DNA of 64,000 bases from Monosporascus cannonballus. Taxonomy: Eukaryota; Ascomycota; Sordariomycetes; Xylariales. The notes beneath the pieces were generated by a model. That model worked only from the letters and a program-made list of their open reading frames with translations. It did no database searches and had not been told where the DNA came from. The stretch is taken from the NCBI GenBank assembly GCA_004154925.1, contig QJNS01000039.1:313009-377008 (forward strand), given 5' to 3'. Position 1 is the first letter of the stretch. Each line of letters begins with the position of its first letter. Positions 11,001 to 54,420 of this stretch are shown piece by piece. The position numbers and the translations under genes were made by a program.

Positions 11001-11560
11001 TTTAATTAATGTTAAAATAATTTCTACGTTAAAATAATTACGATAATTATATTAAGAAATAAAAATAAAAATAAAATTCGTACGAAATTAAATAAGTAAA
11101 TATTATAATTAAAAAAGATTAAAGGAATTAATTTTCGAAAAGAGAAAAATGGTTTTTTTCGTTATAAAAAATATTTAGATAAAAAAACTTAATAAGAAAT
11201 TTGATTTTAAATATATCGGTCCATATAAAATCGTTAAGAAAATCTTAAAAAATAATTATTAATTGGAATTTTTACCAAAAGTTAAATTCCATTTAATTTT
11301 TGATGTTTTTTTATTCGAATTAATAATAAATATTATTAGAATAAGTACGGTATAAAACGATATTGAAATGGAAAACGAATATATATACGAAATGGAAAAG
11401 ATTTTCGATATACGGAAATAAAACGGATTTACTTAATACCTAATTAAGTGGAAAAAGTACTTAAATTCCGAAAATATTTGGAAACCTGCCAAAAACTTTA
11501 TTAACGCTTAACGCCTATTAAAGAACTTTTATTAATAACGACGGACGCGTCCTAATTAAG
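8100..11560 (+). pseudogene. Gy3 pol remnant: protease, RT, RNase H, integrase, chromodomain
   Basis: Retropepsin-like region at 8126-8347 (an open 73-codon frame), with D-C-G in place of the D-S/T-G catalytic triplet. RT lies at about 8690-9560, with the YxDD box preserved as F-D-D at 9286-9294. RNase H is at 9600-10130; the D of T-D-I-S is visible near 9720. Integrase occupies 10200-11250, with its C-D-I-C zinc ligands intact at 10405-10416. The chromodomain is at 11380-11530 (YLIKWKKYLNSENIW). The domain order RT-RH-INT-chromodomain defines a Ty3/gypsy chromovirus. Dozens of in-frame stops mean it is dead. Confidence 0.9.
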
Positions 11561-12070
11561 GGTCGACCATTTAATAACTGGGATATCGGATTAATTGGCC
11601 GCGACCTATGTTAACGTAATAACTGTAATGGCGGCCTTTAATTGTTTTTGTTTTTTTTTCGAAACGCTTAAATTCTTTTATCATTTTTACACCCTAAATA
11701 TTATAACGAAATATTTTAATTTTACGACGGCAAAGTAACTTTCGTTATTTGTGCAAATAATTTAATTTATTTGCAATATTACGCAAAGCCTTACGGACTT
11801 ATTTCTTTTCGCGTTCTAAACGGTTTTCCTTATTAAAAAATTTTTATGTTTAAATTCCGAAAGGACAAATAAATTACAAAAATCACCGTATTATATATAA
11901 CGGGCGTATTTCTCAAAATTACGGTAAACCTTATAGGGTACGCCGACAGAATAATAACGAAAATAAAAATTTTCTTAAGGCATAATAAAATTTAATAATG
12001 TAATACGTTCTGCAAAAATAAAAGCGTTAATACGTTTGCGGAAACGGGATTTTTCGATACGACCAAATAT
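11545..12070 (-). pseudogene. Gy3 antisense ORF with six-cysteine motif
   Basis: Minus-strand gene remnant between the chromodomain and the 3' LTR, converging with pol. At 11876-11965 it reads Y-x2-Y-x6-Y-x8-Y-x2-Y-x6-C, where the final C (TGT) is intact and the Ys are RIP-type replacements of C. This is the spacing of fungal Zn2Cys6 clusters, and it recurs in Gy2, Gy5, Gy6 and Gy8. The N-terminal part resembles Gy4's start (F-G-R-I, with ATG mutated to ATA). The function is unknown. The boundaries are approximate because of stops. Confidence 0.65.
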
Positions 12071-12160
12071 GATAAATATAAAGAAAAAAAAGTTATTTAC
12101 CGGAATTAACAAATAAATGAATAATTTTTAAGGATAAAAATCCTGGAAAAGGAAAGATCG

Positions 12161-12554
12161 TATTATAACCTAACGATTTTGGTTTCCTCAAAACGGTTGG
12201 AGAACTTAGGTACTTAAGCCCAAATATGCTAAAAAAAATTACGTAATTAACTTAAAGAACTTAAGGACTTAGCGCCTTTAAGCCGGTTAAGCCAGCAAAT
12301 GGCTTAAAAGGCTTAAGGGGCTTAAGGGCTTAAGCCGGTTAAATACCTTAAGCCAAGACAAAAATATATACGCTTATTATTTCCATAGTTTGGATAACAT
12401 TAGTTTGCAATATAACATCGTTATCCAAAGCACCCTTAGCATTACGAGACGTAATACGTTACTATATCCATTACTCAGATTCCCACGATACTCCTGCCAA
12501 CATAAACCCGTCGACTTAAGGTTTAATAGTTGGTTAAACCGCCTAGCCGTCACA
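12161..12554 (+). repeat. Gy3 3' LTR (394 bp)
   Basis: Partner of 5795-6187. Here the first (inward) half is RIP-mutated and the last (outward) half is nearly clean, the reverse of the 5' LTR. It ends GCCGTCACA at 12554, followed by the target duplication. The E-box is altered to TTACGTAA at 12239-12246. Confidence 0.94.
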
Positions 12555-12690
12555 AACATGCGAAAACAACACGGATTTACCCAGTATCTAATTAAGTGGA
12601 AAAAGCATTCGGATTTCGAAAATACCTAGAAACCCGCCAAAAGTTTTATTGGCACCTAACGCCTGCTAAAGGATTTTTACTAATAACGAC
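12555..12690 (+). pseudogene. Gy2 chromodomain, continuation after the Gy3 insertion
   Basis: Resumes the frame broken at 5794: the codons after the AACAT duplication read RKQHGFTQYLIKWKKHSDF, the second half of a chromodomain. Joining it in frame to 5740-5794 gives the same layout as the uninterrupted copies in Gy3 (11380-11530) and Gy5 (26450-26600). The downstream tryptophan of the E-N-T-W motif is a stop (TAG). Confidence 0.85.
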
Positions 12691-12839
12691 GAAACCACCC
12701 GAAACAATGGTATTTCAATCCATAAGATCTAAGGAAAAAAATCCTTAATTTACCGTATTCCAATTAATAACGTTTATCCTATTTAAAGCCTATACCTTGA
12801 CCATAAATTCTGATTCCAAATAAGTAAAATTATTAAAAT
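12655..12839 (-). pseudogene. Gy2 antisense ORF, C-terminal part
   Basis: The distal end of Gy2's antisense gene, separated from its N-terminal part (19739-20115) by the Gy4 insertion. It aligns with the same region of Gy5 at about 26620-26790, where the sequence is continuous. It contributes only the low-information tail; the cysteine motif lies in the other piece. Confidence 0.5.
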
Positions 12840-13241
12840 TGTGAGGAGCTAGGGGGTTTAACCAACTATTAAACCTTAGTCGTACGGGTTTATGTTGGCA
12901 GAAGTATCGTGGGAATCTGAGTAATAAATATAGTAATCGCATTACGTTTCGTAATACCAAGGGTGCCTTGGGTAACGAATTATTGTTATAAGCTAAAGTT
13001 ATCTAAATTATAGAAATAATAAATATCTTATATTTAATTTTTTTAACTTATCGATCCTGGCTTTATAAGCTTTACGATCGATCCTGTCGAACCTAGCTTT
13101 ATAAGTTTTACGATCGATCTTGTTAAACCTGGCTTTATAGGCTTTACGATTAATCCTGTCGAGCTATTACGTAACTTAACCCATATAGCTTAATCGTTTG
13201 TTGCAACCGTTTCCGAGGCCGCAACTTATTAAGTTATAATA
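12840..13241 (-). repeat. Gy4 3' LTR (402 bp)
   Basis: Starts on the plus strand with TGTGAGGAGCTAGG. Outward sequence (12840-12960) is little mutated. It contains about three copies of a roughly 36-bp unit around 13055-13160 (each with 'cgatc...tttacgat'), one more than the 5' LTR. The E-box has become TTACGTAA at 13167-13174. Confidence 0.9.
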
Positions 13242-13310
13242 CGATTTTCCTTTTTTATAATTTTCGTCCCGAAAATTTCTTTTTTTTCTGTAAATCTTTT
13301 TTTTCCCATT

Positions 13311-13812
13311 ATGTTAGGTCGTATTAAAAAGCCGATGAACAGAAAAACGAAAAAGCGAAATAATTTGCTTAAAATAATTATTTTTCGAATTATGGATATA
13401 CTTATGTGTTTTTATTATGTTCGTTCCGGGTTGTTATTTTGTCGTACTTTTTTGTCGGATTTTTCCAGGTATAAAAAATACGTAACGCGGAACTAAAGCC
13501 TTTATAACGTTAATGGTTTTTTTTATTTTTTAATTCGAAAAGCTTATTTTAAATTACTTTCAGGTTTAAACGAAACTTAAGAAGGCCGAAAAAAAAGCGA
13601 AATAGGCGTAAGCCAAAGTTTATTATTTTTGAAAATAAAAGAAATTATAGGCCGACCGTATAATACGTATGTTATTTCGTGGGCTTCGGTCCCTGGAGGA
13701 GCTGGATGAGTTGGAACGTCGAGAAAAACAGGCCGAACTGGAGGCCGCTAAGGCCATAACGGCGGAAGCCGTGCCTTCTTTTAACTGGTTTATCTTGGAG
13801 TTCATAAATTAG
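13311..13812 (+). pseudogene. Gy4 antisense ORF: six-cysteine motif and coiled coil
   Basis: Best-preserved copy of the antisense gene, on the plus strand of this minus-strand element. ATG at 13311 opens 61 codons (MLGRIKKPMNRKT...). The motif at 13407-13505 is C-x2-Y-x7-C-x9-Y-x2-Y-x7-Y with two cysteines intact (13407-13409 and the TGT eleven codons later). After RIP stops, the stretch 13670-13812 remains clean and GC-richer. It encodes a highly charged coiled-coil-like helix (LEELDELERREKQAELEAAK) and a short tail ending at a stop at 13810-13812. The gene lies downstream of the chromodomain and is not a shadow of pol. The combination of zinc cluster and coiled coil suggests a nuclear DNA- or chromatin-binding protein, but this is inference. 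Confidence 0.7.
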
Positions 13813-13899
13813 TTATCCATTAATTAGGGAACTTTCGACCTTGCCGATTTTGGCGTTATTAATAAAAACTTTTTAATAAGCGTTAGGCGTTAATAAGGA

Positions 13900-16800
13900 T
13901 TTTAGCGGGTTCCTAGGTGTTCTCGGAATTTGAATATTTTTTTTATTTAATTAGGTATTAAATAAATCCATTTTATTTTCGTATGTTAAGGATTTTTTTT
14001 ATTTCGTATGTTTGTTTATTTTTTATTTTTACGTCGTTTTATGCTGTATACATTTTAATTAAATTCGCTGTTAATTTAAATAAGAATACGAAAAAAATTA
14101 AATAGAATTAAATTTTTGGTAATAATTCTAATTAGTAATTATTTTCTAAGATTGTTTTGCCTATTTTATATAGATTAATGTATTTGAAATTAAGTTTTTT
14201 ATTATGTCATTTTATTTAAATGTTTTTTGTGGTAAAAAAAACCTTTTCCCCTTTTTTAAAAGTTAACTTTTTTAATTTTTTTTAGGTATAATATTTAGTT
14301 ATTTAATTACGTACGAATTTTAATTCCCTTTTGATTTCTTAATATACTTATTATAATTATTTTAATATGAAAATTATTTTGATATTAATTGCATTATCGT
14401 TACGTACTTTTTTATAAATATTTAAAATAAATACAAAATTTACATTTACACGTATTATTTTCATATTTTCGTAATGATTAGTATTATTAGTTAGTTATAC
14501 GATTAATAATTTTTCAATCTAATTATTTTGTTCGTAATTAATATAATATTATAAATAAATTTTTAAGATTTAATTTATTTTTTCCATCAATTCGTTCTTC
14601 TATGGTTTAAATACGTTAAATAATTTGGTATTTAGGCCGATCTATATTATTAAACTTTATTACAATTTAAATATAAATATTAATCCTTTATTTTAAATAA
14701 TTTCTATAAATAATCCGTATATGTTGAAAATATGTTTAAAAAAATATATGTTATTTATTCGGCGTTCGTATTTTCGTAATATAGTAAAAAAATAAAAGAA
14801 TTTCGTAAATCGATCGACGATTACGAAAATGCTATCGTAATATATTCCTGTAATTATATTTTCAGATATAAAAAGTTTAGTAAAAAAATTAAATGTAATT
14901 AAATATTATAGTTATTTTGCGACTAATAATAATTGTAATTTTCCGTATAGTTTATATCGTCGAATCTTTGCTTTAAAATAAATAGCGTATTGCCGTATAA
15001 TTTTTCATATTATTATTTTTATTTTAGGAAAAAAAATATATAGATTAAAACCATTTTAAGGTTTTGTAAATTCTGGATATTCGTATAATTAGTATTCGTA
15101 TATTTTTCGTATTAAAATTTTTTAAAATTCTTTTACAATTTATATTTTATTCGTCTTTTTATTTTCCGGGAAATTATTATTATATTGCTAGATTTTCTGA
15201 TATATATCGAAAGGTACTGCCCGAATTATCGTAATTTGCCGTAAGCGTAAATATTCTTTTATAGTAATATCGAAAATCATATAATTATTTTAAACTAATT
15301 TTTTTTCAAAATTTAATTACCTGCTTAGGACATTTGCTCTCCCATTTTCTAAGTTTTTCCTATAGATAATAACGAAATTAAAGTTCGTCAATTTTTCCGC
15401 ATAACGAAATTATCGTTCTATAAGCTCCTTGGTCGTAATAAATCGGGTAAGATTTTGATAATCCGTATAAATTTTAATCTGATATAAATCTTTTTTTAAA
15501 AAATATCTAAATTCGCAAAATGCCATAATAATAACTATAAATTCCTTTTCTGAAATACCGTAATCAAGTTCGGTTTTTTTTACCTTATACGAAAAGAATA
15601 AAATAGGATATAATTTATTTTAATTATTTTACTTTCCGATTATTACGTTTAATACGTAATCCGAAATATCGGTTTTTAATTTAATAAAGCGGTTTAGATC
15701 GTATATAATTAGTATTAACTCGTTAATAATTGTATCCTTAATATTCTAAAATATTCTTTTCTTATTTTGTATTTATTTACTTTTTTTTTATAAAATTTAT
15801 TAAAGGTATAGCAATTTCGCTAAAATTTCGAATAAACTTCTTATAGTAGTTAACGAATCCAAGGAATGCCTGTATCTCCTTAATCGTTATTAGTATCTGC
15901 TATTTCGTAATTGCAGCGATTTTTTTAAAGTTTATTCTGATATATTCTAAAGTAATAATATATTCCAGATATTTTACTTCTTGCTTATGGAACTAACTTT
16001 TTTTTGCGTTAATAAATAAACTTACATTTTATAAAACTTAAAAAGTTTTATAAACGTATCTTATATGTACTTTTTCCGTTTTGGAAAAGATAAAAATAGT
16101 ATCGAAATAATAATCAATAAAAATATCAAGGTATTTTCGTAATACATAGTTTACTATCTATTCAAAGGTTACTAATACGTTCGTAAATCCCATTAGTATA
16201 ACTAAATATTTAAATAATTTGTATTTCGTTTTAAAGATTATATTTTATTAGTATATCTTTTTTAATTTTAATAATGTTATATATATTTTTAAAAACGTAT
16301 GTTATAAATTATTTAGTTCCGTAAACCTAATTTTTTAATGCCGTAATCAGGGGTAATAATAGTTAATTTTTAATAATAATATCGTTTAATTATTAATAAT
16401 TAATGAAAAATCGAAATTTTTCATTTTTTTTAAATACCAAAAACATTAGATACCTTACTGGTAATTTCGAAAGTCGAATCTATCCTTTCTATAACCGATC
16501 TTCCAGGTACTTTTTTAAAATACGTAATTTGTTTCCGTTAAGGTTATAAATAAGGTAAAATTTTGTCGAGGATTTTTTTTAAGGATTATTTCGTAATTTT
16601 ATTCGTTATATTCCGGTAATTACGTATCGAGCTTTTTTTTGAAAAATTGCTTATATCTATAGTAATATAGTAATATATTAATTAAAGTTTCTAATTTCTT
16701 GGGCTGTTATTCTTATTATTTCAGATCGTTATTTAATTATTTTAATTTCATTTTAATAATAACAATAATACCTCGTATTTTTTTAATATCTATTTTTTTT

Positions 16801-17330
16801 ATATTTTATCTTTTTAGGTTTTAAAGCTTTTGTTAGATCTTTATGCTTACATTCGTCGTCATTATCGATCAAATATTAAAAATTTAATTTTTTTCGTTTA
16901 TTGATAAGGAATAAAATGAATTTTATTTAACCAGTTTTACCGTTAATTAAAATTCGGTATTAACGTATCCATAATAATCCCAAGGTCATATCGTAATTCC
17001 CGAATAAGACGATATCGAAATTAATTATTTGATATTATCCTTTTACAAAAATCTCGAAATAATTAATTTTGCGCGTAATTTTTCCGTTATTGTAAACGAA
17101 TTCCTAACTTTTGATATTTGTCGTTGTATAAAGTTCTAACTTATATTCCTATAGCAGTTTGAACTTATTAATCATATTTGGTATAATATAATTTTCGCCC
17201 AAAGTTCCGTAATCCACTATTGCGATATATCAATATGTTCCGATTTATATATCCAAAGTAATAAAATTATTAATATTTTTTATCGTCGTATTTAAAACCT
17301 TTTTCGGAAATGTTTTATAATTTCTTTAGA
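13900..17330 (-). pseudogene. Gy4 pol remnant
   Basis: Minus-strand pol. The chromodomain is near 13880-14010, integrase about 14150-15330, RNase H 15360-15800 and RT 15800-16750. Its box at about 16089-16106 reads F-D-T-I-F-I, with the second catalytic D lost. Protease is around 17130-17250. The RT end and RNase H start are clearly recognisable in the minus-strand reading of 15800-15960 (LGFxNYYRKF-type motif). All frames carry stops. Confidence 0.8.
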
Positions 17331-17339
17331 TTTCGTTAT

Positions 17340-19300
17340 TTTGCGGCTTTTTTATAAATAATTTTTTTAACTTTTATTCGAATTTGTCGAATTTTGCTTA
17401 TGTTTTTTGTTTAACGCGTTAAATTACTATATTTATTGTTATTGCCGGCGTATTATTCCGTTAAGTTATATCAGTTATTGTTACTTTGGCTGCAATTTTT
17501 TCCTCTATCGAATAAATTATTTCTTTATATTTGCAATTACGTCCTATTATGCGTTATCTTAGTTATTATTCTAAAGATTTCTTATAAATTAATAGATTTA
17601 TTCCTTAATAATTTTCCTTTTTTGGGGATTTGTAATAAATGCTAATTAAAAATGGAAATCCGTAATAGTTTTCTGGTGATGTTTTTTTACTGTACGCTAG
17701 ATTAACTCTTTTTCCGTGTGATAATCATATTATTTATAATAACAAAAAAGGTTTTCCTATAGGTATTGTTTTTTTCCGGGCCAGCTTTTTATTTCGGCTA
17801 GTTGCTGGACATTTCCTAGGGCTGTAGTTCGAAAATATCGATATTATTGCTTATTCTCTTTGTTATTTGCGGTACGGTTTGGAAAGTCGAATCTTTCATA
17901 ATATATACGGGTAATTCGTTCGTAAATATGTTATTTTTATTTTTTGTAATCTGGATATTCTCGTCGTCGACAATATATGGCATATATTCTGCCGTATCGA
18001 TTAAGGGTTCCGGGACAAATTTCTTTTATTTAATTCTGGTACTTACGTAATTATCGTTATAACGCTTTTTGTTATGCTCGCGATGCTTATTAAGCTAGCT
18101 TTTTGGCTTTTCTATTTTTTATCGAATTTTTTATCGAGATAGCCCTTATTATATTTCTTGTCATAGGAGACCTGGCCCGTATTTACGTTAAATTATATTA
18201 ATAAATTTACTTGCGTCTTTTTGATTTTTTTAAATTTATTTTTTGGACACAGATTTCCAATTATTTTAACGCGGCGTTTTAAGTACTTTATACCATAATA
18301 TCTTATGTCCCATTTTGTTATAATTATAACACTTAATTTGGCTCCAGTTTTTTCTATAAATAATTCTTAGTTCCATAAATCCTGGTTCTATGTCGTAAAA
18401 AATATTGCTACATCGAAAAATGCTGATATTAGCCATATATCGGGATTTACTATTATTTTTCCCTTTAATATCTTTAATGCATTATGCGTATTATCGATCG
18501 TCAATTTTAACTGCCATAACAATATAATCCAACAAATAATTAGGCCGATTAAATTTAAAAAGTTCTTTTTGCATTTTTTTAGGCCGTCGAAAAACTTAGC
18601 CATTAATGTTTTTTGTCCCTAGTTCAGTTTAGTTATTAGCTAAATTAAGGTATTGCCGTAACTAAATATTAATCATTTTTATTATAACTACTGCATTTAT
18701 ATCTCGGCTTTTATCTTTTCGTTTATTATTCTGAAAGTTTTTGTTAATACTTGCCTAAATTATTCGTAATTGCTGTAAATTCGCATTATTTCTAGGTTTC
18801 GTTTTTCAACTGACAAAATAACGTATTTTCTTATTACAGGCTCGAATTAAATAGCCGTATTTCCGGTAAATCGTCCGATTACTAACTTAATTCGTATAAT
18901 AAACGTAATAAGTCGAACAGGAAAATACCTAAAATATATTCGGCACTAAATCAAGAATATTTATAGCTTGGTCAAAGTTCTATCGAAAAATTCTGGCTTG
19001 GAAAACTTAAAACCTTTTCCTAGTTCTTTAGTAAAATTTAGCTGGATAACCTGGTTTATTCGAAAAAGCTTTCCAATCTCGAGAGCTTTTCCTTTTTCCT
19101 TAAGCTTTTCGTAAACGGCTTAAAAAGACATCGTAAGATCATTATTGTTTCTTTTAAGCTGGAAAATGCGTTTATTCATAGTATCAAGTTGTCAAAAAAC
19201 TTTTTTGCAAGATAAACAAGGGTTTTTCTTTTCCTTCTCGGATTTCATTTTAATATCTAGATAATTAAAGACTTGGTAAATGGGCTATTCGGGCTGCTTG
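17340..19300 (-). pseudogene. Gy4 gag remnant
   Basis: Minus-strand gag. A 71-codon open piece at 18388-18603 (MAKFFDGLKKCKKNFLNLIG...) corresponds to the conserved capsid segment seen at 6712-6900 in Gy3. The nucleocapsid knuckle at about 18285-18330 keeps both the first cysteine and the histidine (C-Y-N-Y-N-K-M-G-H-K). Plus-strand frames at 17436-17645 and 17847-18050 are antisense shadows of the gag-protease region. Confidence 0.75.
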
Positions 19301-19353
19301 CTGGTAAATATAATGTAGGCGATATTACTTAAAGTTTAACGGAATTACTAAAC

Positions 19354-19367
19354 AAAAGTTTATAACG
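19354..19367 (-). other. Gy4 primer binding site
   Basis: Minus-strand sequence CGTTATAAACTTTT immediately inside the 5' LTR. It is the RIP-altered form of the family core CGTTGCAAGCTTTT, which is not complementary to a tRNA 3' CCA end but matches the complement of AGCTTGCAA in the LTR. Confidence 0.5.
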
Positions 19368-19733
19368 TATAACGAACTAAAGGGTTTAACCAATTATTAA
19401 ACTTTAATCGTACGGGTTTATATTGACAGAAATATCGTAAAAATCTAAGCAATAAATACAGTAATCGTATTACATCTCGTAATACTAAGGGTATTTTAGG
19501 TAACGAATTGTTATTACAAGTTAAAATTATTTAAATTATGGAAATAATAAATATCTTATACTTAACTTTTTTAACTTATCGATCTTAGCTTTATAGGTTT
19601 TACGATCGATCCTGTCGAACTTGGCTCTATAGGCTTTACGATCGATCCTATCAAGCCATCACGTGACTTGACCCACATAGCTTAGTCGTTTGTTGCGACC
19701 GTTTCTAAGGCCGCAACTTGTTAGATCATAACA
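19368..19733 (-). repeat. Gy4 5' LTR (366 bp)
   Basis: Right-hand LTR ending in ATCATAACA at 19733, followed by AAAAT. The outward end (19600-19733) is almost unmutated and the inward part is RIP-mutated. It has two copies of the 36-bp unit that occurs three times in the 3' LTR. The LTR includes GACCGTTT (AAACGGTC on the element strand) at 19697-19704. Confidence 0.92.
19659..19666 (-). promoter_or_regulatory. TCACGTGA palindrome in the U3 of Gy4
   Basis: Intact E-box palindrome about 70 bp from the start of the 5' LTR, at a position similar to that in Gy3 and Gy5. The neighbouring bases are not conserved. Confidence 0.5.
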
Positions 19734-19738
19734 AAAAT

Positions 19739-20115
19739 CGTCCAAGGATTAAAAAGTATAATTAACAAATTTCGCACCCTGGGATTAGTAATATTGGCGC
19801 TAACGACGTATATAAGAAAAACGCGCAAAACCTTTGGACAAAGATTTTTCGGCCGCTAATTTTTCCTTTTTTAACCTTTTCGACTTTATGATATAACGAT
19901 TAATCATAAGAACAAAAATTTCTATCCCGTTATACGAAGAGCTTTAACGAACACATTTTTTATAACGAAAAACCCCGTCCATTATTTGGTAATTAAGCTG
20001 TTAGGCAGAATAAAAAAACAAAATATTGCGTCAAAACTTTCAAATCCAATTAAATTAACCAGAGCAAATCGTTATTCAGATTTGCGAAAACTACGCTTAG
20101 ATATACCGGAAAACA
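19739..20115 (-). pseudogene. Gy2 antisense ORF, N-terminal part with six-cysteine motif
   Basis: Minus-strand remnant beside Gy2's 3' LTR. Between 20012 and 19932 the frame reads Y-x6-Y-x8-Y-x2-C-x6-Y, positions 2 to 6 of the six-cysteine motif. The fifth cysteine (TGT) is intact. The first position is lost at a T-run, which looks like a frameshift. The rest of the gene lies at 12655-12839, on the far side of Gy4. Plus-strand codons at 19986-20171 are a shadow. Confidence 0.6.
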
Positions 20116-20158
20116 TATTGAATAAATACAAAAAGCTTACCGAAAGAAAAAAAAATCG

Positions 20159-20579
20159 TATTATGGTTTAACGAACCACAGTTTCCAAAAACGGTCTGCC
20201 ACGATCTAACCACAAATGCACGGTAGGGCAGGTTACGTAATAAATTACCAACTTATTAGTGGTAAACTAATAAACCGGATTACCAACTTATTAGTAATAA
20301 GCTAATAAACCGGATATCAACTTACTAATAATAAGCCAGTAAGCCGGATTACCAACTTACGGATGGTAAACCAGTAAGCCGGGTTAAGATATATACGCTT
20401 ATTATTTCCATAATTTAGATAATTTTAACTTGCAATAATAATTCGTTATCTAAAGTACTCTTAGTATTACGCAACGTAATACGTTATTATATTTATTACT
20501 TAGTTTCCTACGATACTTCTGCCAACATAAACCCGTACGACTAAGGTTTAATAGTTGGTTAAACCTCCTAGCCGTCACA
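20159..20579 (+). repeat. Gy2 3' LTR (421 bp)
   Basis: Begins TATTATGG (ancestrally TGTTATGA) and ends GCCGTCACA at 20579. AAACGGTC is at 20189-20196 and a RIP-altered E-box (TTACGTAA) at 20233-20240. It contains a four-unit tandem array. The outward third is almost free of RIP. U3 is close to that of Gy5, so Gy2 and Gy5 belong to one subfamily. Confidence 0.92.
20244..20382 (+). repeat. four tandem ~35-bp units in the Gy2 LTR
   Basis: Units at 20244-20278, 20279-20313, 20314-20347 and 20348-20382, each of the form 'attaccaactta...taagccgg'. The Gy5 LTRs have about two (5') and three (3') units of the same repeat. Confidence 0.85.
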
Positions 20580-20904
20580 AAACGTTAATTCGTAAATAGC
20601 GAAACCACTACGAATCGGTAACGGTACTATATGGCACCTAAAATTAGGACACCCAGGACCCGAAGTGATCGCATAGTTGCAGTCCTATACGAAAGGAGTC
20701 CGCTTAAAGGGTTTTATAACAGTCGAATGCCAAGCATGTGGCCAGGCGAAAGCCAAAAGGCAAATACGCCGTGCGCCTAAGGAAGGAATTTCCCGATCAG
20801 GATAAAAAATCACTATCGATTTTACAGATTTCGAAGAAAACCCTGAAGGATACAGATACGTTATGTTTGTATCCAAGTAATATTCAGGTTTTATTTGGGA
20901 TATT
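20580..20904 (+). pseudogene. Co1 integrase zinc finger and start of the catalytic core
   Basis: A lightly mutated stretch. It reads WHLKLGHPG, then ECQACGQAKAKR: the H-x4-H and C-x2-C ligands of the copia GAG-pre-integrase/integrase zinc finger are all intact. The catalytic-core start IDFTDFEENPEGYRYVMFVS holds the first acidic residue of the D,D,E triad. One frameshift lies near 20780. The frame is interrupted in Y-S-G-F-I-W-D-I by the Gy5 insertion and resumes at 27632. Confidence 0.85.
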
Positions 20905-21275
20905 TATCATGACCCAACGGGCCACGGTCTCCAGAAACGGTCTGACATGACCCAACCATAAGTGCGTGGTGTGGCAGATCACGTGATGGATCACCAACTC
21001 ACTGGTAGTGAGGTAAGCCAGTAAGCCGGATTACAAACTTATTGGTAATAATCTAGCAAACAGAAGAAGGATATATACGTTTATTATTTCCATGGTTTAG
21101 ATAGCTTTAATTTACAATATTTATTAATACTAATCTTTTATAATACGCTTTTACACTTTTGGTATTAAAAAACGTAATTAAGTTATTTTATTGCTATAAA
21201 ATCTTACGATATTTCTATTAATATAAATCCGTACGATTAAGATTTAATAATTAATTAAACCCTTCAGCCGTTATA
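20905..21275 (+). repeat. Gy5 5' LTR (371 bp)
   Basis: Starts TATCATGACCCAACGG. The first ~120 bp are essentially unmutated and the rest is RIP-converted. AAACGGTC is at 20935-20942. Confidence 0.93.
20979..20986 (+). promoter_or_regulatory. TCACGTGA palindrome in the U3 of Gy5
   Basis: Intact E-box palindrome 75 bp into the 5' LTR. The 3' LTR carries TTACGTGA at 27300-27307. Confidence 0.5.
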
Positions 21276-26100: not shown

Positions 26101-26610
26101 ATAATTTTTACGTTAAAATAATTACGATAATAATAATAAAAAATAAAAACAGAATTGAAATTCGTACGTAATTAAATAAGCAAATATTATAACTAGAAAA
26201 AGTTAAAAAAATTAATTTTCGGAAAAGAGAAAATAGTTTTTTTGTTATAAAAAAATTTAAATAAAATCACCTAATAAAAAATTCTACTTTAAGTATATCG
26301 GTTCATATAAAATTATTAAGAAAATCTCAGAAAATAATTACTAATGAAAACTTTTACCAAAAGTTAAATTTCATTTAATTTTTAATTTTTTTTTCGAGTT
26401 AGCAATAAATATAATTAAAATGCATATAATACGAAACGACGTAAAAATAAAAAACAAATAAATATACGAAATAAAGAAAATTTTCGATATGCAAAAGTAA
26501 AACGGATTTACCCAGTACCTAATTAAATGGAAAAATTATTCAAATTTCGAAAATACCTGGAAATCCGCTAAGAACCTTATTAACGCCTAACGCCTATTAA
26601 AGAATTTTTA
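23180..26610 (+). pseudogene. Gy5 pol remnant
   Basis: Protease is near 23220-23460, RT about 23830-24640 and RNase H 24700-25290. RNase H includes an open 67-codon stretch, ANFNFVIIYKKGSENNKANT, from 25088. Integrase covers 25300-26400, with its zinc-ligand run at about 25490-25510 (E-I-C-A-K-A-K), and the chromodomain 26450-26600 (YLIKWKNYSNFENTW). RIP stops break every domain. Confidence 0.87.
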
Positions 26611-26639
26611 CCAGTAACGACGGAACCACCCGAAAAAAT

Positions 26640-27149
26640 GGTATTTTAGTTTACAAGATCTAAAAAGGGAAGCCCTTAATCCACCGTATTTCAATTAATA
26701 ACGTTTACCTTACTTAAGGCCTGTACCTCGACGATAAACTCTGATTCTAATTACGTAAGCTCGTTAAAATTATCTAAAAATTAAAGGATACGATTAATAA
26801 ATTTCGCATTTTGGGACTGATAATATTGACGTTAACGACGTATACGAAAAGAACGCGCGAAAATTTCGGATAAACATTTTTCGGCCGCCAGTTCTTTTTT
26901 TTTTTAATTTTTTCGATTCCGCGATATAACGAATAATTATAAAAATAAGGATTTTTGTCCCGTTATACGAACCACCCCGACGAACATATTCCTTATAACG
27001 AAAGACCCGGTTATTATTTGGTAATTAAGCTGCCGGACAAAATAAAAAAAATAAGGTATTACGTTAAAACCTTCGAATTTAATTAAATTAACTAAGGCAA
27101 ATCGTTATTCGGATTTACGAAAATGACGTTTAGATATACCGGGAAACAT
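26640..27149 (-). pseudogene. Gy5 antisense ORF with six-cysteine motif
   Basis: Minus-strand gene starting at an ATG at 27149 (MFPGISKRHFRKSE, then a stop). Motif positions 1-3 (Y-x2-Y-x6-Y) lie in one frame. Positions 4-6 (RYKEYVRRGGSY) lie in another, and the whole motif spans 89 bp (26965-27053), one base short of the 90 expected. A single-base deletion therefore sits inside it. With that allowance the spacing equals that of Gy6 and Gy8. A lysine-rich segment follows. All cysteine codons here are RIP-converted to Y. Confidence 0.65.
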
Positions 27150-27225
27150 ATTAAAGAAATGCAAAAGGCTTACCAAAAAGAAAAAGGGAAATTTTAAGGG
27201 CAAGATTTGTAAAAAGGGGAAATTA

Positions 27226-27626
27226 TATTATAACTTAACGGGTTACGGTTTCCAGAAACGGTCTGACATAACCTAACCATAAGTGCGTGGTAGGGCAGGT
27301 TACGTGATGGATTACTAACTTATTGGTGGTAAGCCAGTAAGCCGGATTACTAATTCACTAGTAGTAAGCCAGTAAGCCGGATTACAAATTTACTGATAAT
27401 AATTTAGCAAGTAGGAGAAGGATATATACGCTTATTATTTCTATAGTCTAGATAGTTTTAATTTGTAATATTTATTAATACTAATCGTTTGAAATACGTT
27501 TTTGCACCCTTGGTGTTAAGAAACGTGATTAAGTTATTTTATTGTTACAAAGTCCCACGATACTTCTGCCAACATAAACCCGTACGACTAAGGTTTAATA
27601 GTTGGTTAAACCCCCTAGCCGTCACA
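27226..27626 (+). repeat. Gy5 3' LTR (401 bp)
   Basis: Inward half mutated, outward ~90 bp (from about 27535) clean, ending GCCGTCACA. About three tandem units of the 35-bp repeat. Confidence 0.93.
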
Positions 27627-32780: not shown

Positions 32781-32803
32781 AAGAAGATAATTTTTTCAAT
32801 TTT

Positions 32804-33745: not shown

Positions 33746-33948
33746 TCAGCCCTCTTGGACGAGCCGGCCAAATTTCGCCTTCGACCCGGGACCAATCACA
33801 GTCACGGGTCCATTCAACCGAATCTGCCCGTCCTGATGCCCAAAACCCATGGCGGACTGACGATAGCTTTCAGGGCGTGTTATACTGTGATTAGCCAGGA
33901 TTTTTGCAACTTCTCGAATTGCCATCACCTCAGCTGAGGCAGCATAAC
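33746..33948 (-). pseudogene. possible host ORF split by Co2, 3' part
   Basis: Minus-strand frame ending at a stop at 33746. It reads ASAEVMAIREVAKILANHS and continues to ...GSKAKFGRLVQEG. Removing Co2 and one AGAAC copy joins it in frame to 62156-62240, giving 96 codons including the stop. The join could be chance (about 35 codons upstream stay open). No family is recognised. Confidence 0.3.
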
Positions 33949-33953
33949 AGAAC

Positions 33954-34140
33954 TGTCACAGTTAGGCTGATCGCGAGAAAAGGTTGCATGGAGTGTGGGA
34001 AGTGATAATTGTCTGACTAGAATTGAGCTCTAAGGAGCGGTAATTAGGAAGCTCTCTATATACTGTGGGAGTGCCGGAATAAGGTTTTTCCGGGTGCTAT
34101 AGAACTTGATAATTAATATAGATACCCCTATTTTATGATA
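33954..34140 (-). repeat. Co2 3' LTR (187 bp)
   Basis: Begins TGTCACAGTTAGGC on the plus strand and ends ATGATA at 34140 (CACGACA in the other copy). The outer half is clean; the inner end is RIP-mutated. Confidence 0.92.
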
Positions 34141-34295: not shown

Positions 34296-34703
34296 TGTGA
34301 CGGCTATGCGGTTTAACCAACTATTAAACCTTAAGTCGACGGGTTTATGTTGGCAGGAGTATCGTGGGAATTTGAGTAATAAATACAGTAACGTATTACG
34401 TCTCGCAATACCAAGGGTGCCTTGGGTAACGATATTATATTGCAAACGATTGGTATTAATAAATATTGCAAGCTGAAATTATTTAAATTATGGAAGTAAT
34501 AAACGTATATATCTTAATTTCTTTATTACTGCTTACTTTTGTTTAGTACAACCTCGTTAAGCGGTTGTTTAATACTGCTTAGTCGTACTTAACCGAGCTC
34601 AGTTAAAACCCGTTAAGTATTGATTACGTAATTTTAGGCTAACGTAACTTTGTAATCTTAGCCCGGACCGTTTTCGCAGGCCCAGTTAATTTAGGTTATA
34701 ACA
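34296..34703 (-). repeat. Gy6 3' LTR (408 bp)
   Basis: Starts TGTGACGGCTATGCGG; the left, outward part is clean. It includes TTGCAAGCT at 34466-34474, the LTR segment that matches the primer site, plus TTACGTAA (34624-34631) and GACCGTTT (34666-34673). Confidence 0.93.
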
Positions 34704-34779: not shown

Positions 34780-35345
34780 GCCCGCGTTATTAAAAATTGC
34801 CGTTAGGTTCTTTCGTCTATTACGCGACGTCAAAATTTGCTTTTTATTTTTGACGATTTCAGTTTTAAAGTTATACCGTATTTTTTATATTTTTTTAAAG
34901 GCTGAAAATGCGAAATAATGGAAAACATTTTTAAATATAAGGCGTATGTTAAACGTGGTTATTTTTATGATATTAACGGCGTTTCTTTATTTTTCTTAAA
35001 GAATATTTGTACCGAAAATTAAGGTTTAAAACGTAAAAAGGTGCTGGCGGAAAAACGTTTCTTGGAATTATAAAAACGTTATTAGTAAAAAATAAACGAA
35101 GCTATTACGCGGTTAATCCGTTTTCGAAAATAAAAAGTATTTTTTCGTTCGAAAAAGGTTAAAATGGTATAATAAAAATTGTAATCGTTAAAGGAGCTGG
35201 AGAAATAAAAGCGTTAGGAGCAGGCCAACGCCGAAATTTCCTTAGCCGCCTTGGCTTTTTTTTTTAAGTTGCCCGGCATTGTTTGGCTGCTGGAAAACGT
35301 TAATTGGGACATAATTATATCCGGTGGTTCCGTCGTTATTAGTAA
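34780..35345 (+). pseudogene. Gy6 antisense ORF with six-cysteine motif
   Basis: Plus-strand gene remnant. The motif at 34879-34968 reads Y-x2-Y-x6-C-x8-Y-x2-Y-x6-Y with the third cysteine (TGC) intact. It is followed by K-R-G and then a charged region (about 35080-35250) resembling Gy8 and Gy4: a run of L-K-E-L-E-K and Q-x-N-A-E-I-S-L-A-A-L. It ends before the chromodomain on the opposite strand. One stop interrupts the motif (TGA between positions 2 and 3). Confidence 0.65.
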
Positions 35346-35389
35346 AAGCTTTTTAACAGACGTTAGGCGCTAATAAGGTTTTTGGCAAA

Positions 35390-38300
35390 TTCCCAGGTAT
35401 TTTCGGAATTTGAATATTTTTTCCACTGAATTAGGTATTAGGTAAGTCCGTTTTGTTTTCGCATATTAAAAAGTTTTTTTATTTTATATACTTATTCGTT
35501 TTTTATTTTTACGTCGTTTTATGCCGTATGTACTTTAATTATGTCTGCTGTTAATTCGAATAAAGAAATATAAAAAATTGAATAAAGTTTAATTTTTGGT
35601 AAAAGTTCTAATTGGTAATTATTTTCTGAGATTTTCTTGGCGATTTTGTATGGACCGATATATTTGAAATCGAGTTTTTTGCTAAGTTTCTTTGTTTAAA
35701 TACTTTTTATGGCAAGAAAAATTATTTTTCCTTTTTCGAAAATTAATTTTTTAACCTTTTTTGATTATAGTATTTGTTTATTTAATTCCGTATGAATTTT
35801 AATTTTATTTTTATTTTTTGGTGCAGTTATCGTAATTATTTTAACGTAAAAATTGTTTTAATATTAATTGCACTATTATTACATATTTTTTATAAACTTT
35901 TGGAATAAAATCAAAATTTGTATTCGTAACTATTATCTTAATGTTTTCGTAATAATTAATATTATAAGTTAATTATATAATTAGTAATTTTTTAATTTAA
36001 TTATTTTATTTATAATTAATATAATACCGTAAATAAGTTTTTAAAGTTTAATTTGTTCGTATTATTTATTTATTTATTTATGGTTTAAATACGTTAAATA
36101 ATTTGTGATTTAGGCCGATTTATGCTATAAAGCCTTATTAAAATTTAGATGCGAATATTAATTCTTTATTTGATATGATTTTTATTAGTAATCCGTATAT
36201 GCTAAAAATATGTTTAAAAAGGGTATATATTAATTGTTCGGCGTCTGTATTTTCGTAATATAGTAAAAAATAGGAAAATTTCGTAAATCGGTTGACGATT
36301 ACAAAAATGCTGTTGTAATATATTTTTGTAATTAAATTTCTGACATAAAGAATTTAATAATAAAGTCGAATATAATTAAATATTATGGTTATTTTGTAAC
36401 TGGTAATAGCTGTAATTTTCCATATGGTTTATATCGTTAAATTTTTATTTTAGCGCAAATATCGTATTATTATATAATTTTTTATATTATTAATTTGATT
36501 TTAAAAAATGAATATATACGTTAAAACCTTTTTAAGGTTTTGTAGATCCTTGGATGTGCGTATAATTAATATTCGTATATTTTTCGTATTAGATTTTTTG
36601 GATATTTTTTTGGAATTTATATTTTATCCGTTTTTGGGTTTTTTGAAAAACCGTTATTATATTATTAAATGTTTTAATATATATCGAAAGGTATTACCAG
36701 AATTATTATAATTTGTCGTAAGCGTAAATAGTTTTTTATAGTCGTATTAAAAATTATATAGTTAATATTAACCAATTTCTTTTAAGGTTTAATTATTTTC
36801 TTAAAATATTTGCTTTACCGTTTTTTAATTTTCGTTTTGTAAATAATAATGAAATCGAAGTTTGCTAATTTTTTCGTATAATAAAATTATTGTTTTATAA
36901 GTTCCTTAATCGTAATAAATTAGGTAAGATTTTAATAATCCGTATAAACCTTAACCTGGTATAAGTTTTTTTTTAGAAAATACCTAAATTCCCGAAATGC
37001 TATAATAATGGCCATAAACCTTTTATTTAAAATGCTACAATTAAGCTCGGCTTTTTCTAATTTATACGAAAAAAAATGTAATGAGGTATAATTTGTTTTA
37101 ATTATTTTGCTATCCGATTATTACGTTTAACGCATAATCCGAAATATTGGTTTTTAATTTAATAAAGTAATTTAAATTGTATATAATTAATATTGGTTCG
37201 TTAATAATTATATGCTTAATATCCTAAAATATTTTTTTATGTTAGGCGTTTATTTAAACTTTTTTTTTCGTAAAATTCGTTAAAGATATAATTATTTTAC
37301 TAAAGTTTCGAATAAATTTCCTGTAATAATTAGCGAATCCAAGGAATACCTGTATTTTTTTAATTATTATTAGCATTTGCCATTCCGTAATTGCAGCCAT
37401 TTTTTTGGAGTTTATCTTAATATGTTCTGAGGTAATAATATATTCCAGATATTTTACTTTTTATATATGGAATTAATTTTTTTTTTACGTTAATAAGTAA
37501 TTATACGTTTTATGAAGCTTAAAAAACTTTATAAATATATTTTGCATATATTTTTTCTATTTTTAAGAAAATGAAAATATCGTCGAGATAACAAATAACG
37601 AAAATATCGAGATATTTTCGTAATACTTAATTAATTATTCGCTAGAAAAATATTAATATATTCGTAAATCCCATTAACGTAATTAAATACTTAAATAATC
37701 CGTATTTTATTATAAAGGTCGTTTTTTATTCGTATTCTTTTTTAATTTTAATAAAGTTATATCCATTTTTAAAATTAAATATTATAAATTATTTAGTTTC
37801 GTAAGGTTGGTTTTTTATTTCCGTAATTAAAGATAATAATATTTAATTTTTAATCATAATATTATTCAGTTATTAATAATTAATTATAAATCGTAATTTT
37901 TTATTTTTTTTAATACGAAAAATATTGGATATTTTGTTAATAATTTCGAAAATCGTATTTATTTTTTTTGTAATCGAATTTCCAGGTATTTTTTAAAAAT
38001 GCGTAACTTGTTTCCGTTAAAATTATAATAAGGTAAAGCTTTATCGAAAATCCTTTTTAAAAAATTATTTCATAATTTTATTTACTATATTCTGGGAATT
38101 TTATGTTAAGCTTTTTTCTAAAACGTTATTTGTATTTATAATATTATAATAACATATTAATTAATATTTTTAATTTTTTAAGCTATTATTCTTATTATTC
38201 CAAATTGTTATTTAATTATTTTAATCTTATTTTAATAATAATAATAATATGTTGTATTCTTCTTTAATACCTGTTTCTTTATATATTTTATTTTTTAGGT

Positions 38301-40682: not shown

Positions 40683-41090
40683 TATAATAGCTATACGGTT
40701 TAACTAATTATTAAACCTTAAGTCGACGGGTTTATATTAATAAAAGTATCGTAAAAATTTAAGCAATAAATATAATAACGTATTACCTCTCATAATACCA
40801 AAAATGCTTTAAGTAACGATATTATATTACAAACGATTAATATTAATAAATATTATAAGCTAAAATTATTTAAATTATAAAAGTAATAAACATATATATC
40901 TTAATTCCTTTATTACTGCTTACGTTTATTTAATAAAGTTTCGTTAAGCGGTTACTCAGTGCTACTTAGTCGTACTTAGTCGTGCTTAGTTGAGATACGT
41001 TAAGCACTGATTACGTGACTTTGGGCTAGCGTAGCTTTGTGATCTTGGCCCGGACCGTTTTCGCAGGCCCAGTTAACTTAGGTTGTAACA
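40683..41090 (-). repeat. Gy6 5' LTR (408 bp)
   Basis: Inward (left) part heavily mutated, outward part clean. TTACGTGA is at 41011-41018 and GACCGTTT at 41053-41060. Ends GGTTGTAACA at 41090. Confidence 0.93.
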
Positions 41091-45757: not shown

Positions 45758-45829
45758 ATTTTTTATTTATTATAAAAGATAACGCGATAATTATTAAAAG
45801 CAAAGTTTGCTAATTACAAAACGAACCTA

Positions 45830-47060: not shown

Positions 47061-47259
47061 AATACGAATATTTTATTATCCCGGTTATACGGAAACCAAC
47101 CTTTAAAAGCCATATAGGGTATTATAATATATAACGACGAATTAAATTAATTTCTAGACGTAAATTTAAAAAAGGAACCGGAATAAGTATATATATTTAA
47201 TCTATTTCGGCTAATAATTGTAAAACGGTTAAAATAAACCCGCTTTTTAAAAAAAGGGT

Positions 47260-51070: not shown

Positions 51071-51099
51071 TTATAAAAAAAATTAAATATATATATAGG

Positions 51100-52700: not shown

Positions 52701-52749
52701 TTAATAATAATATTATTAGGGATTAATAACATAAAAAGGGGGGAATAAT

Positions 52750-52955
52750 TATAAGAATATAACCTCTATAAGGATAAGGCTAATAACCAACCAGCCACCA
52801 ATTAATTACCGACCTATTTACTAGTATAAATCCACTATCTGGCAGCTAATAAGAAACGCCAGATGGAAATAACTTAATATATTTATTTCTTGAAATCTGC
52901 TTTACGATTGGTCGGAAATCACCTTACCCAGCTCACAGCTATCTATTATCTTACA
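52750..52955 (+). repeat. Gy7 3' LTR (206 bp)
   Basis: Inward start mutated (TATAAGAATATAACC) and outward ~90 bp clean, ending ATTATCTTACA. Confidence 0.93.
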
Positions 52956-53350
52956 TAATTAGAAAAACGAAAATCTTTTTATTATATATATTTTTAATTA
53001 TTAAGAATTATTTAAAATTATTATAACCCGTAAGATAATCAAAATAATTTTAAGTAATATGCTAAAAGGGTTTAAAGGTTAAACTTTTTAATAAATGCTT
53101 TAAAATTATTTAAAAAGCGTATATACAAATATAAACCTTATATTTCCGGCGCGTTATTTTTTTATAATAACGTTTTTAACGTTTTTAACGAACGATTTCA
53201 ATACCGTAAATTCTATATACCTTAATTTTAAATATTAAAGATCTTTTATTCTTATACGGGGGCATAAATAATCCCTTAATTGCTTTTACGGTTTTTTTCT
53301 TTTTTTATTAATCGTTAAATATATTAAAACTTTAATTGAGTTTTACGGAA
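52956..53350 (-). pseudogene. Co2 pol fragment between Gy7 and Gy8 (pre-integrase/integrase)
   Basis: About 395 bp of Co2 isolated between two insertions. The minus-strand reading (KVYICIRFLNNFKAFIKKFN) resembles the copia integrase core around 'V-x-x-x-F-x-D-D-x-S/T-R-x'. It is collinear with the gag piece on the right and the integrase C-part on the left. Assignment rests mainly on position. Confidence 0.55.
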
Positions 53351-53725
53351 TATGACGGCTAGGCGGTTTAACCAACTATTAAACCTTAAGTCGACGGGTT
53401 TATGTTGGCAGAAGTATTATGGGAATCTGAGTAATGAATATAATAATCGTATTACATCTCGTAATACCAAAGGTACCTTAGGTAACGATATTATATTGCA
53501 AGCTGAAGTTATTTAAATTATGAAATTAATAAGCGTATATATTTTTCTTTTTCTTAGTTTAATTACTTGTAATTATGCCGTTAGTAATAATTACGATCGC
53601 TTAAAATCACTTTTAATTATTAATAATCATTAGCTTGGCAATGATCACCGTTACGTAACCCGGGAAGTGGCCCGTATGCTCCTGCCTAACCGTTTTTTAA
53701 GACCGGAGTTTGTCGGGTCGTAACA
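53351..53725 (-). repeat. Gy8 3' LTR (375 bp)
   Basis: Starts TATGACGGCTAGGCGG; the outward part is clean. TTGCAAGCT (primer-site partner) is at 53496-53504 and TTACGTAA at 53651-53658. Ends GGTCGTAACA. Confidence 0.93.
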
Positions 53726-53782
53726 TAATTTTCCTTTTTCCCAAATCTTATCCTTAAAATTTCTTTTTTTCTTTTTTTTCGT

Positions 53783-54420
53783 TTGGTAAATATCCTTTTT
53801 TTTTTACTTTTAATCATATCATTTCGCATTTCCAAAATTCGTCGTATTCCCCGTTCTTTTACCGTTTGTCGTATTAACTTCGTTAAAGCCTTTAACGAAT
53901 TTGGTTACGAAATTATGATTTATTTTTATTATTTTTCGAAAAACATAAAGTATAAAATAATAAAAAACGTTTTAAGGTATAAGGAATATATTAATCGGGG
54001 TCGATTTTATAATAATACCGATATACCTATTTCTTTCTTGCAAAATATTCGTCATAAATATTAACGTTTGGAACATAAAAAAGCGTTTATCGAAAAGCAA
54101 TTATTAAAGCTTTAACGGTTTTACCTCGAAATTTAACGCAAATATTAAGAAAAAATAAATAAAGTTTTTTTTCGTCTTATTTATTTGCGTAAATAAAAGG
54201 CGTTAATTCGTTCGAAAGGTATTACCATAATATAACGTAAGTTCCAATTATTAGATAAGTTAAAAAAACAAAAACGTTAAAAACAAAAACAGTTAAAAGT
54301 CGCCGTTACGGCTATTACGTTAGCGCAGGCCGTAATCGACTAGCCCGATATCCCGGCTATTAACTGGTCGACTATTAATTAGGACGCGCCCGTTATTATT
54401 AATAAAAGTTTTTTAACAGG
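53783..54420 (+). pseudogene. Gy8 antisense ORF: six-cysteine motif and coiled coil
   Basis: Open for 93 codons from 53783 (TTG/ATG-proximal start uncertain) to 54064. The motif at 53921-54010 is Y-x2-Y-x6-Y-x8-Y-x2-Y-x6-Y, with R-Y-K-E-Y-I-N-R-G at positions 4-5, exactly as in Gy5 and Gy6. Downstream of a stop the reading continues with basic helices and, at 54249-54350, a coiled-coil-like run (LLDKLKKQKR...KQLKVA). The end near 54420 converges on the chromodomain of the opposite strand. All six cysteine codons are RIP-converted to Tyr. Confidence 0.68.

What the first reader, a model, noticed from the sequence alone, without database searches (positions are those of the whole stretch)
11545..54420. 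Antisense gene with a Zn2Cys6-spaced motif conserved in six gypsy elements
Between chromodomain and 3' LTR, on the strand opposite to gag-pol, six elements carry the same remnant. Five have the exact spacing C-x2-C-x6-C-x8-C-x2-C-x6-C (Gy3 11876-11965, Gy6 34879-34968, Gy8 53921-54010, Gy5 26965-27053 with one lost base, Gy2 19932-20012 for positions 2-6). Gy4 (13407-13505) has x2-x7-x9-x2-x7. Most positions are Tyr, the expected RIP product of Cys. Intact Cys codons occur at different positions in different copies: 1 and 3 in Gy4, 3 in Gy6, 5 in Gy2, 6 in Gy3. The spacing is that of fungal GAL4-type zinc clusters. A retroelement-borne antisense DNA-binding protein would be notable.
Basis: partly seen in the sequence, partly recalled or inferred. 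Interest (0 to 1): 0.9.

Follow-up and report, generated by a model that had tools for sequence, protein, structure and literature searches.

The report
Antisense zinc-motif gene in fungal retrotransposons
Several families of mutated (RIP-damaged) retrotransposons in this fungal genome carry, on the strand opposite to their own genes, the remains of a small gene for a six-cysteine, probably zinc-binding protein with a long coiled-coil stretch, and an undamaged relative of that protein exists in another fungus.

Summary
In 130 aligned copies of five element families, the six positions are Cys or Tyr codons in 761 of 780 cells, and 28 of 30 family-positions keep Cys in at least one copy. One own-genome copy keeps all six Cys. 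In Gy6 the antisense frame stays open, apart from RIP-type stops, to a fixed stop at codon 166; the chromodomain frame stops at codon 146, so the two genes overlap tail to tail by about 60 nt. All 10 family pairs match in this frame above every shuffle. A search found an intact 194-aa relative in Monosporascus with exactly C-x2-C-x6-C-x8-C-x2-C-x6-C (E 1.5e-44).

Pfam Zn_clus is the best match, but borderline, and the basic first half and linker proline of Gal4-type clusters are missing. With its coiled coil the protein looks like a small dimeric nucleic-acid-binding regulator; zinc and DNA binding are inferred. Antisense genes in LTR elements are known (Botrytis brtn; plant Retand TRP28); listings of the library searched showed no zinc-cluster-like one. 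New variant of a known kind.

The parts
11876..11965 (-). Gy3 six-position motif (Y-Y-Y-Y-Y-C) in the antisense gene
11640..12064 (-). Gy3 antisense gene remnant: stretch similar to Monosporascus P0003 residues 3-141, in two reading frames (window copy carries a frameshift near 11840); the main Gy3 subfamily has a fixed stop just before the motif
   Evidence: tblastn
11398..11544 (+). Gy3 chromodomain (end of pol)
12163..12550 (+). Gy3 3' LTR (partner 5797-6183)
34879..34968 (+). Gy6 six-position motif (Y-Y-C-Y-Y-Y)
34873..35376 (+). Gy6 antisense gene: ATG/ATA codon two codons before the first Cys position (ATG in 20 of 30 copies) to the stop at codon 166 (30 of 30 copies); the last ~60 nt overlap the end of pol
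   Evidence: start codon inferred
35318..35476 (-). Gy6 chromodomain (end of pol)
34303..34703 (-). Gy6 3' LTR (partner 40690-41090)
53921..54010 (+). Gy8 six-position motif (all Tyr in the window copy)
53915..54436 (+). Gy8 antisense gene remnant, ATG to the stop after the ending shared with Gy6; end inferred by likeness to Gy6
54402..54536 (-). Gy8 chromodomain (end of pol)
53366..53725 (-). Gy8 3' LTR (partner 59758-60117)
26965..27053 (-). Gy5 motif; the window copy lacks one base, other copies keep the frame
26577..27059 (-). Gy5 antisense gene remnant, to the stop at codon 159 (29 of 30 copies); start inferred
26477..26629 (+). Gy5 chromodomain (end of pol)
27217..27622 (+). Gy5 3' LTR (partner 20897-21271)
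13407..13505 (+). Gy4 motif, spacing x2-x7-x9-x2-x7 (C-Y-C-Y-Y-Y)
13841..13996 (-). Gy4 chromodomain (end of pol)
12846..13239 (-). Gy4 3' LTR (partner 19374-19731)
19932..20012 (-). Gy2 motif, positions 2-6 (Y-Y-Y-C-Y); its chromodomain (by inference) lies at 12555-12698(+), separated by the Gy4 insertion

Best explanation
At least five related Ty3/gypsy (chromodomain) families in this fungus carry a small antisense gene between pol and the 3' LTR. It reads towards pol and, in Gy6, overlaps the end of pol tail to tail. Its product is about 160-195 aa: an N-terminal six-cysteine cluster C-x2-C-x6-C-x8-C-x2-C-x6-C, then a long coiled coil, then a short tail. The copies examined here are decayed by RIP, which turns TGY (Cys) into TAY (Tyr). 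Inferred mechanism: an antisense promoter in or near the 3' LTR (the motif begins 164-198 nt inside the LTR edge) makes the mRNA; the protein binds zinc, dimerises through the coiled coil and binds nucleic acid, most likely as a regulator of the element's own transcription or silencing, broadly as antisense retroviral regulators do. Shown: the gene, the Cys set, its conservation and an intact relative. Inferred: promoter, zinc, dimer, DNA binding, target.
For: Cys/Tyr codons in 761 of 780 cells and 112 of 130 copies with C/Y at all six. 27 of 30 positions against 78 of 3526 other codon columns. 8 of 8 further copies, chosen from the 151 matches, keep the spacing with C/Y only, and one has six Cys. 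Cys number rises with GC outside the motif (pooled rho 0.30, p 6e-4; no single family significant), as expected if Tyr comes from RIP. In Gy6 each of the 12 stop columns (stop in at least 30% of copies) from codon 1 to 165 has a RIP-source codon in other copies, and the first column without one is the stop at codon 166. Between-family profile matches beat 30 of 30 shuffles in 10 of 10 pairs. RIP-insensitive R/Y differences are highest at antisense third positions in 6 of 6 pairs by copy-pair fractions; site-level p 0.05-0.08 for third (highest) and 0.03-0.05 for second (lowest). Intact Monosporascus protein P0003, E 1.5e-44, six Cys in register with Gy3; it also matches the Gy6 antisense gene in 4 of 30 loci (best E 6e-7, residues 28-193) and one of 20 Gy4 loci (E 5e-6). 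Zn_clus 23.7 bits on its N-terminal piece. Predicted helix 69-150 (10-residue pLDDT means 81-98 from residue 71).
Against: Zn_clus likeness is borderline and lies in half-domain stretches. The predicted model is of low confidence over the cluster. The first half lacks the basic residues of host Zn2Cys6 domains. The main Gy3 subfamily has a fixed stop before the motif in 24 of 24 copies with the extra codons. Gy5 has one stop (codon 91) in 29 of 30 copies with no source codon seen. The antisense frame is the best-scoring of six frames in only 4 of 6 family pairs over the motif alone. By site counts third positions are strictly highest in 4 of 6 pairs and tied in 2. P0003 gives no match at E <= 1e-3 in 30 Gy5 and 20 Gy8 loci. 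CGG/CCG pairs in the 3' LTR and spacer showed no layout common to three families. No transcript data. Whether P0003 lies antisense in an element could not be checked.
Confidence: 0.6

Rival explanations
1. The antisense gene is real, but the six-Cys protein does not act on DNA: it is an RNA-binding, nucleocapsid-like or anti-silencing accessory factor, or a protein-protein adaptor with a coiled coil.
For: First half of the cluster is not basic and the best matched stretch is that of the second half of Zn_clus; coiled coil dominates the protein.
Against: Zn_clus, a DNA-binding family, is the only Pfam family near its cut-off.
Confidence: 0.27
2. A host zinc-cluster gene fragment captured once by an ancestral element and carried along without function in the element.
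For: Host genome has 150 scored Zn_clus matches, 143 over the cut-off; the main Gy3 subfamily may have been broken before it multiplied.
Against: Cys set and coil are kept across five diverged families, the end of the gene in Gy6 and Gy5, and both in Monosporascus, which needs selection; the profile match of decayed motifs to host Zn_clus domains is weak.
Confidence: 0.08
3. Chance or sense-strand artefact: C/Y columns produced by RIP in AT-rich DNA or by coding constraint of pol on the other strand.
For: Tyr codons are common at 20% GC; in Gy6-Gy8 two other frames score slightly higher over the motif.
Against: The Gy6 chromodomain frame stops at codon 146, so codons 1-145 are outside pol; Cys present at 28 of 30 positions; intact relative with the same six Cys.
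Confidence: 0.03
4. The antisense transcript, not the protein, matters (double-stranded RNA and siRNA control of the element).
For: Proposed for plant antisense ORFs (PMC7264820, passages seen).
Against: Protein-level conservation of six Cys and coil across families and species is not needed for an RNA function.
Confidence: 0.02

Closest known systems
brtn, antisense gene of Botrytis Boty-like gypsy elements (Zhao et al. 2011, Virology; title seen as a citation only)
   Same: Additional antisense gene in a fungal LTR element; Boty-like elements with brtn are described as having a CHROMO domain (PMC4227169 passage); a BRTN-like Monilinia transcript is reported (PMC5987419 passage)
   Different: Its sequence, exact place and domains were not seen here; homology with the present protein is untested
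Plant Retand antisense ORFs with TRP28 domain (PMC11963269, passages seen) and other plant aORF-3R (PMC7264820, passages seen)
   Same: Antisense ORF between pol and 3' LTR; predicted DNA binding; regulatory role proposed
   Different: Different domain: TRP28 (PF04195) appears in no Pfam scan here; non-chromovirus plant lineage; the word zinc does not occur in the Retand paper
HTLV-1 HBZ (recalled; the passage mentions only the antisense promoter in the HTLV 3' LTR)
   Same: Antisense gene at the 3' end of a retroelement; coiled-coil nuclear regulator
   Different: bZIP, no zinc cluster; not compared here
Fungal Zn(2)-Cys(6) binuclear cluster (Pfam PF00172, Gal4 type)
   Same: Six Cys as two C-x2-C-x6-C halves near the N terminus, coiled coil after it; Zn_clus match near cut-off
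   Different: Linker 8-9 (host set 5-6), no linker proline, first half not basic, very small protein, borne by a retroelement in antisense
Hypothetical protein DL771_010968, Monosporascus sp. 5C6A (P0003)
   Same: Homologue of the Gy3-family antisense product, and more distantly of Gy6's, over nearly its whole length, six Cys in register
   Different: Intact; its genomic setting is unknown here

Membership tests
Pfam Zn_clus (PF00172) | Six Cys with Zn2Cys6-type spacing (allowed linker range recalled) | tested here: met
   x2-x6-x8-x2-x6 in P0003 and, as C/Y, in four families; x2-x7-x9-x2-x7 in Gy4
Pfam Zn_clus (PF00172) | Score over the curated cut-off of 21 bits | tested here: inconclusive
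   59-residue N-terminal piece of P0003 23.7 bits; P0003 full length 19.6; six-Cys own-genome copy 20.1; 0 of 9 RIP-decayed copies listed
Pfam Zn_clus (PF00172) | Basic residues between Cys2 and Cys3 and a proline in the linker, as in the host's own domains | tested here: not met
   20 of 20 host domains have the proline and 2-5 Lys/Arg; P0003 has none and one; among the copies read, only the L086-L088 subfamily has a K-rich first half
Pfam Zn_clus (PF00172) | Two zinc ions bound by six Cys; sequence-specific DNA binding | not testable with these tools
   needs protein
brtn-type antisense gene of fungal gypsy elements | Additional antisense gene in a chromodomain gypsy element | tested here: met
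   (here between pol and 3' LTR; brtn's own place was not seen)
brtn-type antisense gene of fungal gypsy elements | Sequence homology to BRTN | not tested
   BRTN sequence not available; paper not held
Plant Retand TRP28 antisense ORF | TRP28 domain (PF04195) | tested here: not met
   Not listed in Pfam scans at E <= 10 of 9 and 9 raw copies and of P0003

The most novel reading that the evidence does not exclude
A lineage of fungal gypsy elements encodes, from an antisense promoter at its 3' end, a dimeric zinc-cluster regulator of its own LTR: a fungal counterpart of the antisense regulators of complex retroviruses, with a cluster made of two copies of the second Gal4 half.
Probability: 0.4. 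Interest if true: 0.8.

Novelty: new variant of a known kind. Interest (0 to 1): 0.62.

Why it matters
Additional antisense genes of LTR elements are known in plants and Botrytis, but without an established function. A six-cysteine, zinc-cluster-like protein kept across five element families and in a second fungus gives one such gene a testable biochemical activity. It also shows that RIP-decayed copies, read as segregating Cys/Tyr columns, can reveal lost genes without rebuilding any sequence.

Tried and rejected
Homologue search with a mixed-family profile (A1) gave none at E <= 0.01 among 1811 candidates, and a single Gy6 copy gave none at E <= 10 among 85. Only the Gy3-family profile A3 found one relative (1 among 1420). 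The database may hold few fungal proteins, so absence elsewhere means little. A Gy6-like match without stops (C141, the only such row of 150) proved to lie in AT-rich decayed DNA with stops on both sides. Profile comparison of decayed motifs with 20 host Zn_clus domains was weak: score 11.1, reached by 4 of 200 column shuffles and by 18 of 200 that keep the Cys columns. The intact P0003 motif did better: local score 24.9, reached by 0 of 100 full shuffles and 1 of 100 that keep Cys; global 19.0, reached by 0 and 2 of 100; the local alignment covers only 15 columns, P0003's first half on the host's second half. PDB sequence searches gave nothing significant; GAL4 (3coq) appeared at E 1.1. NCBIfam and the plasmid collection gave nothing useful. 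CGG/CCG layout in LTRs gave no common pattern. Some tblastn matches of P0003 in Gy6 loci (L015 at 3239-3800, L033, L037) lie away from the Gy6 antisense gene and were not counted; those in L012, L015, L020 and L023 lie on it.
Full report
Setting. The window lies in an 88.8 Mb, 618-contig genome with 150 scored Zn_clus matches, 143 over the cut-off, a fungal trait (recalled). Most 2-kb stretches of the window have 18-33% GC and the window is full of diverged repeats, as expected of RIP-decayed gypsy elements.

The observation. Chromodomain matches (Pfam Chromo 39.2 bits for a Gy6-family piece; tblastn of that piece in the window) and LTR pairs place five of them between pol and the 3' LTR, on the opposite strand. 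The motif begins 164-198 nt inside the LTR edge (Gy3 198, Gy4 168, Gy5 164, Gy6 176, Gy8 196). Gy2 fits too, once the Gy4 insertion between its presumed chromodomain (12555-12698) and its motif is allowed for.

Copies elsewhere in the genome. Window plus own-genome copies were aligned: Gy3 28, Gy6 30, Gy8 21, Gy5 30, Gy4 21, 130 in all, taken from the best-scoring matches of searches that score 40 of 595-2251 candidates each; Gy2 copies were listed but not aligned. At the six positions 761 of 780 codons are TGY or TAY, 236 of them TGY. 112 of 130 copies have C/Y at all six. Both residues occur at 28 of 30 family-positions; Gy6 positions 1 and 23 have no Cys in 30 copies. With a strict rule (at least 85% C/Y, both present) 27 of 30 positions qualify, against 2 of 563 other codon columns of that frame and 76 of 2963 in the other five frames. 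Copies with higher GC outside the motif keep more Cys (pooled rho 0.30, p 6e-4; no family alone is significant). TGY to TAY is a C-to-T change at CpA on the other strand, the usual RIP change (recalled). Eight further copies, chosen from the 151 own-genome matches of the Monosporascus protein, all keep the exact spacing with C/Y only, and one has six Cys, with a stop inside the motif.

Gene, not only motif. In the Gy6 antisense frame there are 12 stop columns (stop in at least 30% of copies) from codon 1 to codon 165; each has CAA, CAG, TGG or CGA in other copies, and the first column without is the stop at codon 166 (30 of 30 copies). Gy5 ends alike at codon 159 (29 of 30), but has one unexplained stop at codon 91 (29 of 30). 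In Gy3 all 11 stop columns from codon 1 to the end of the alignment (about codon 140) are of the RIP type, but a stop is fixed at codon -3 in 24 of 24 copies with three extra codons, so its main subfamily may have been broken early. In Gy6 the chromodomain frame has a stop in 30 of 30 copies at antisense codon 146, so pol and the antisense gene overlap by about 60 nt at their ends and codons 1-145 are free of pol. This was not worked out for the other families. Upstream, ATG/ATA stands two codons before the first Cys position in 29 of 30 Gy6 and 21 of 21 Gy8 copies; the intact relative starts further upstream, so the start is uncertain.

Constraint between families. Profile-profile scores in this frame exceed all 30 shuffles in 10 of 10 pairs (weakest: 21.1 against a maximum of 14.0). 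Purine/pyrimidine differences, which RIP cannot make, are highest at third codon positions in 6 of 6 pairs of four families by copy-pair fractions and lowest at second positions in 4 of 6. By site counts third positions are strictly highest in 4 of 6 pairs and tied in 2; site-level tests give p 0.05-0.08 (third) and 0.03-0.05 (second). The antisense frame has the best mean BLOSUM score in 4 of 6 pairs over the motif; in Gy3-Gy5 it is a hair below another frame and in Gy6-Gy8 two other frames score higher. This last support is modest.

Un-RIPped relative. Profile A3 (8 raw Gy3-family copies) found hypothetical protein DL771_010968 of Monosporascus sp. 5C6A, E 1.5e-44, the only hit at E <= 10. 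It is 194 aa with Cys 33, 36, 43, 52, 55, 62: exactly x2-x6-x8-x2-x6. By tblastn it matches 28 of 28 Gy3-family loci, window 12064-11640 on the minus strand, and 1 of 20 Gy4 loci (E 5e-6). It also matches the Gy6 antisense gene in 4 of 30 loci (L012, L015, L020, L023; E 2e-4 to 6e-7), in L020 from residue 28 to 193 with the first Cys in register. At E <= 1e-3 it matches 0 of 30 Gy5 and 0 of 20 Gy8 loci. Its profile scores against Gy6, Gy5, Gy4 and (barely, 14.1 against 13.6) Gy8 exceed all 30 shuffles. In the own genome it gave 151 matches (150 of 983 candidates scored, not all rows shown); two of the rows shown have no stop inside the matched stretch. Its genomic setting could not be checked.

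What it is. The protein has a six-Cys cluster near the N terminus, a helix at residues 69-150 (10-residue pLDDT means 81-98 from residue 71; the cluster itself 52-58; single-sequence prediction), and a short acidic, Trp-containing tail. The fold search never ran. Zn_clus is the best Pfam family, over its cut-off for a 59-residue N-terminal piece (23.7 against 21) and under it for the full protein (19.6) and for the six-Cys own-genome copy (20.1). The best stretch matched is that of the second half of the model. Against 20 host Zn_clus domains P0003's motif scores 24.9; 0 of 100 full shuffles and 1 of 100 Cys-keeping shuffles reach this. All 20 host domains have linkers of 5-6 residues with a proline and 2-5 Lys/Arg in the first half; here the linker is 8-9, without proline in P0003, and its first half has one Lys. 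I therefore call it Zn2Cys6-like and do not file it in the family.

How it may work. An antisense promoter at the 3' LTR, translation of a small zinc-binding, coiled-coil dimer, and action on nucleic acid, most likely on the element's own expression. Only the gene and its conservation are shown; the rest is inferred. A search for CGG/CCG layouts in the LTR and spacer of three families found none in common.

What is known. Antisense additional genes are known: brtn in Botrytis Boty-like elements (citation title and passages seen in PMC8365987, PMC7264820, PMC4227169), a BRTN-like Monilinia transcript (PMC5987419 passage), plant aORF-3R (PMC7264820 passages) and Retand TRP28 antisense ORFs predicted to bind DNA (PMC11963269 passages). 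The listings (titles, starts of abstracts) of nine library searches showed no zinc-cluster antisense gene in a fungal LTR element. Two papers holding the words Zn2Cys6, antisense and LTR (PMC7014384, PMC8557909) were not opened, and most subscription journals are not held, so this is not proof of novelty.

Noticed in passing
window 3900-20607: Apparent nested insertions: Gy3 (5797-12550) and Gy4 (12846-19731) seem to lie inside Gy2, whose pol-like match (4873-5205; query piece without a Pfam match of its own), chromodomain (12555-12698) and 3' end (about 19732-20607) are split by them.
   Followed up: partly
window 32804-33421: A GC-richer island (41% over 32001-34000) with overlapping ORFs of 196 aa (-) and 190 aa (+) among RIP-decayed DNA; the 196-aa ORF has a Cys-rich N-terminal stretch but no Pfam family near its cut-off.
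   Followed up: partly
window 62001-64000: GC rises to 47%: edge of the AT-rich block; only short ORFs seen.
   Followed up: no
Gy3-family loci L086-L088: A Gy3 subfamily lacks three codons before the first Cys position and has a K-rich first half, closer to classical Zn2Cys6 and to the Monosporascus protein.
   Followed up: partly
Gy6 family, codon 28: An extra C/Y column (8 Cys, 21 Tyr of 30) two codons before the sixth position, seen only in Gy6 among the five families.
   Followed up: no
G000:C33:171342-171456 (L150): A copy in this genome that keeps all six Cys codons, with one stop inside the motif.
   Followed up: no
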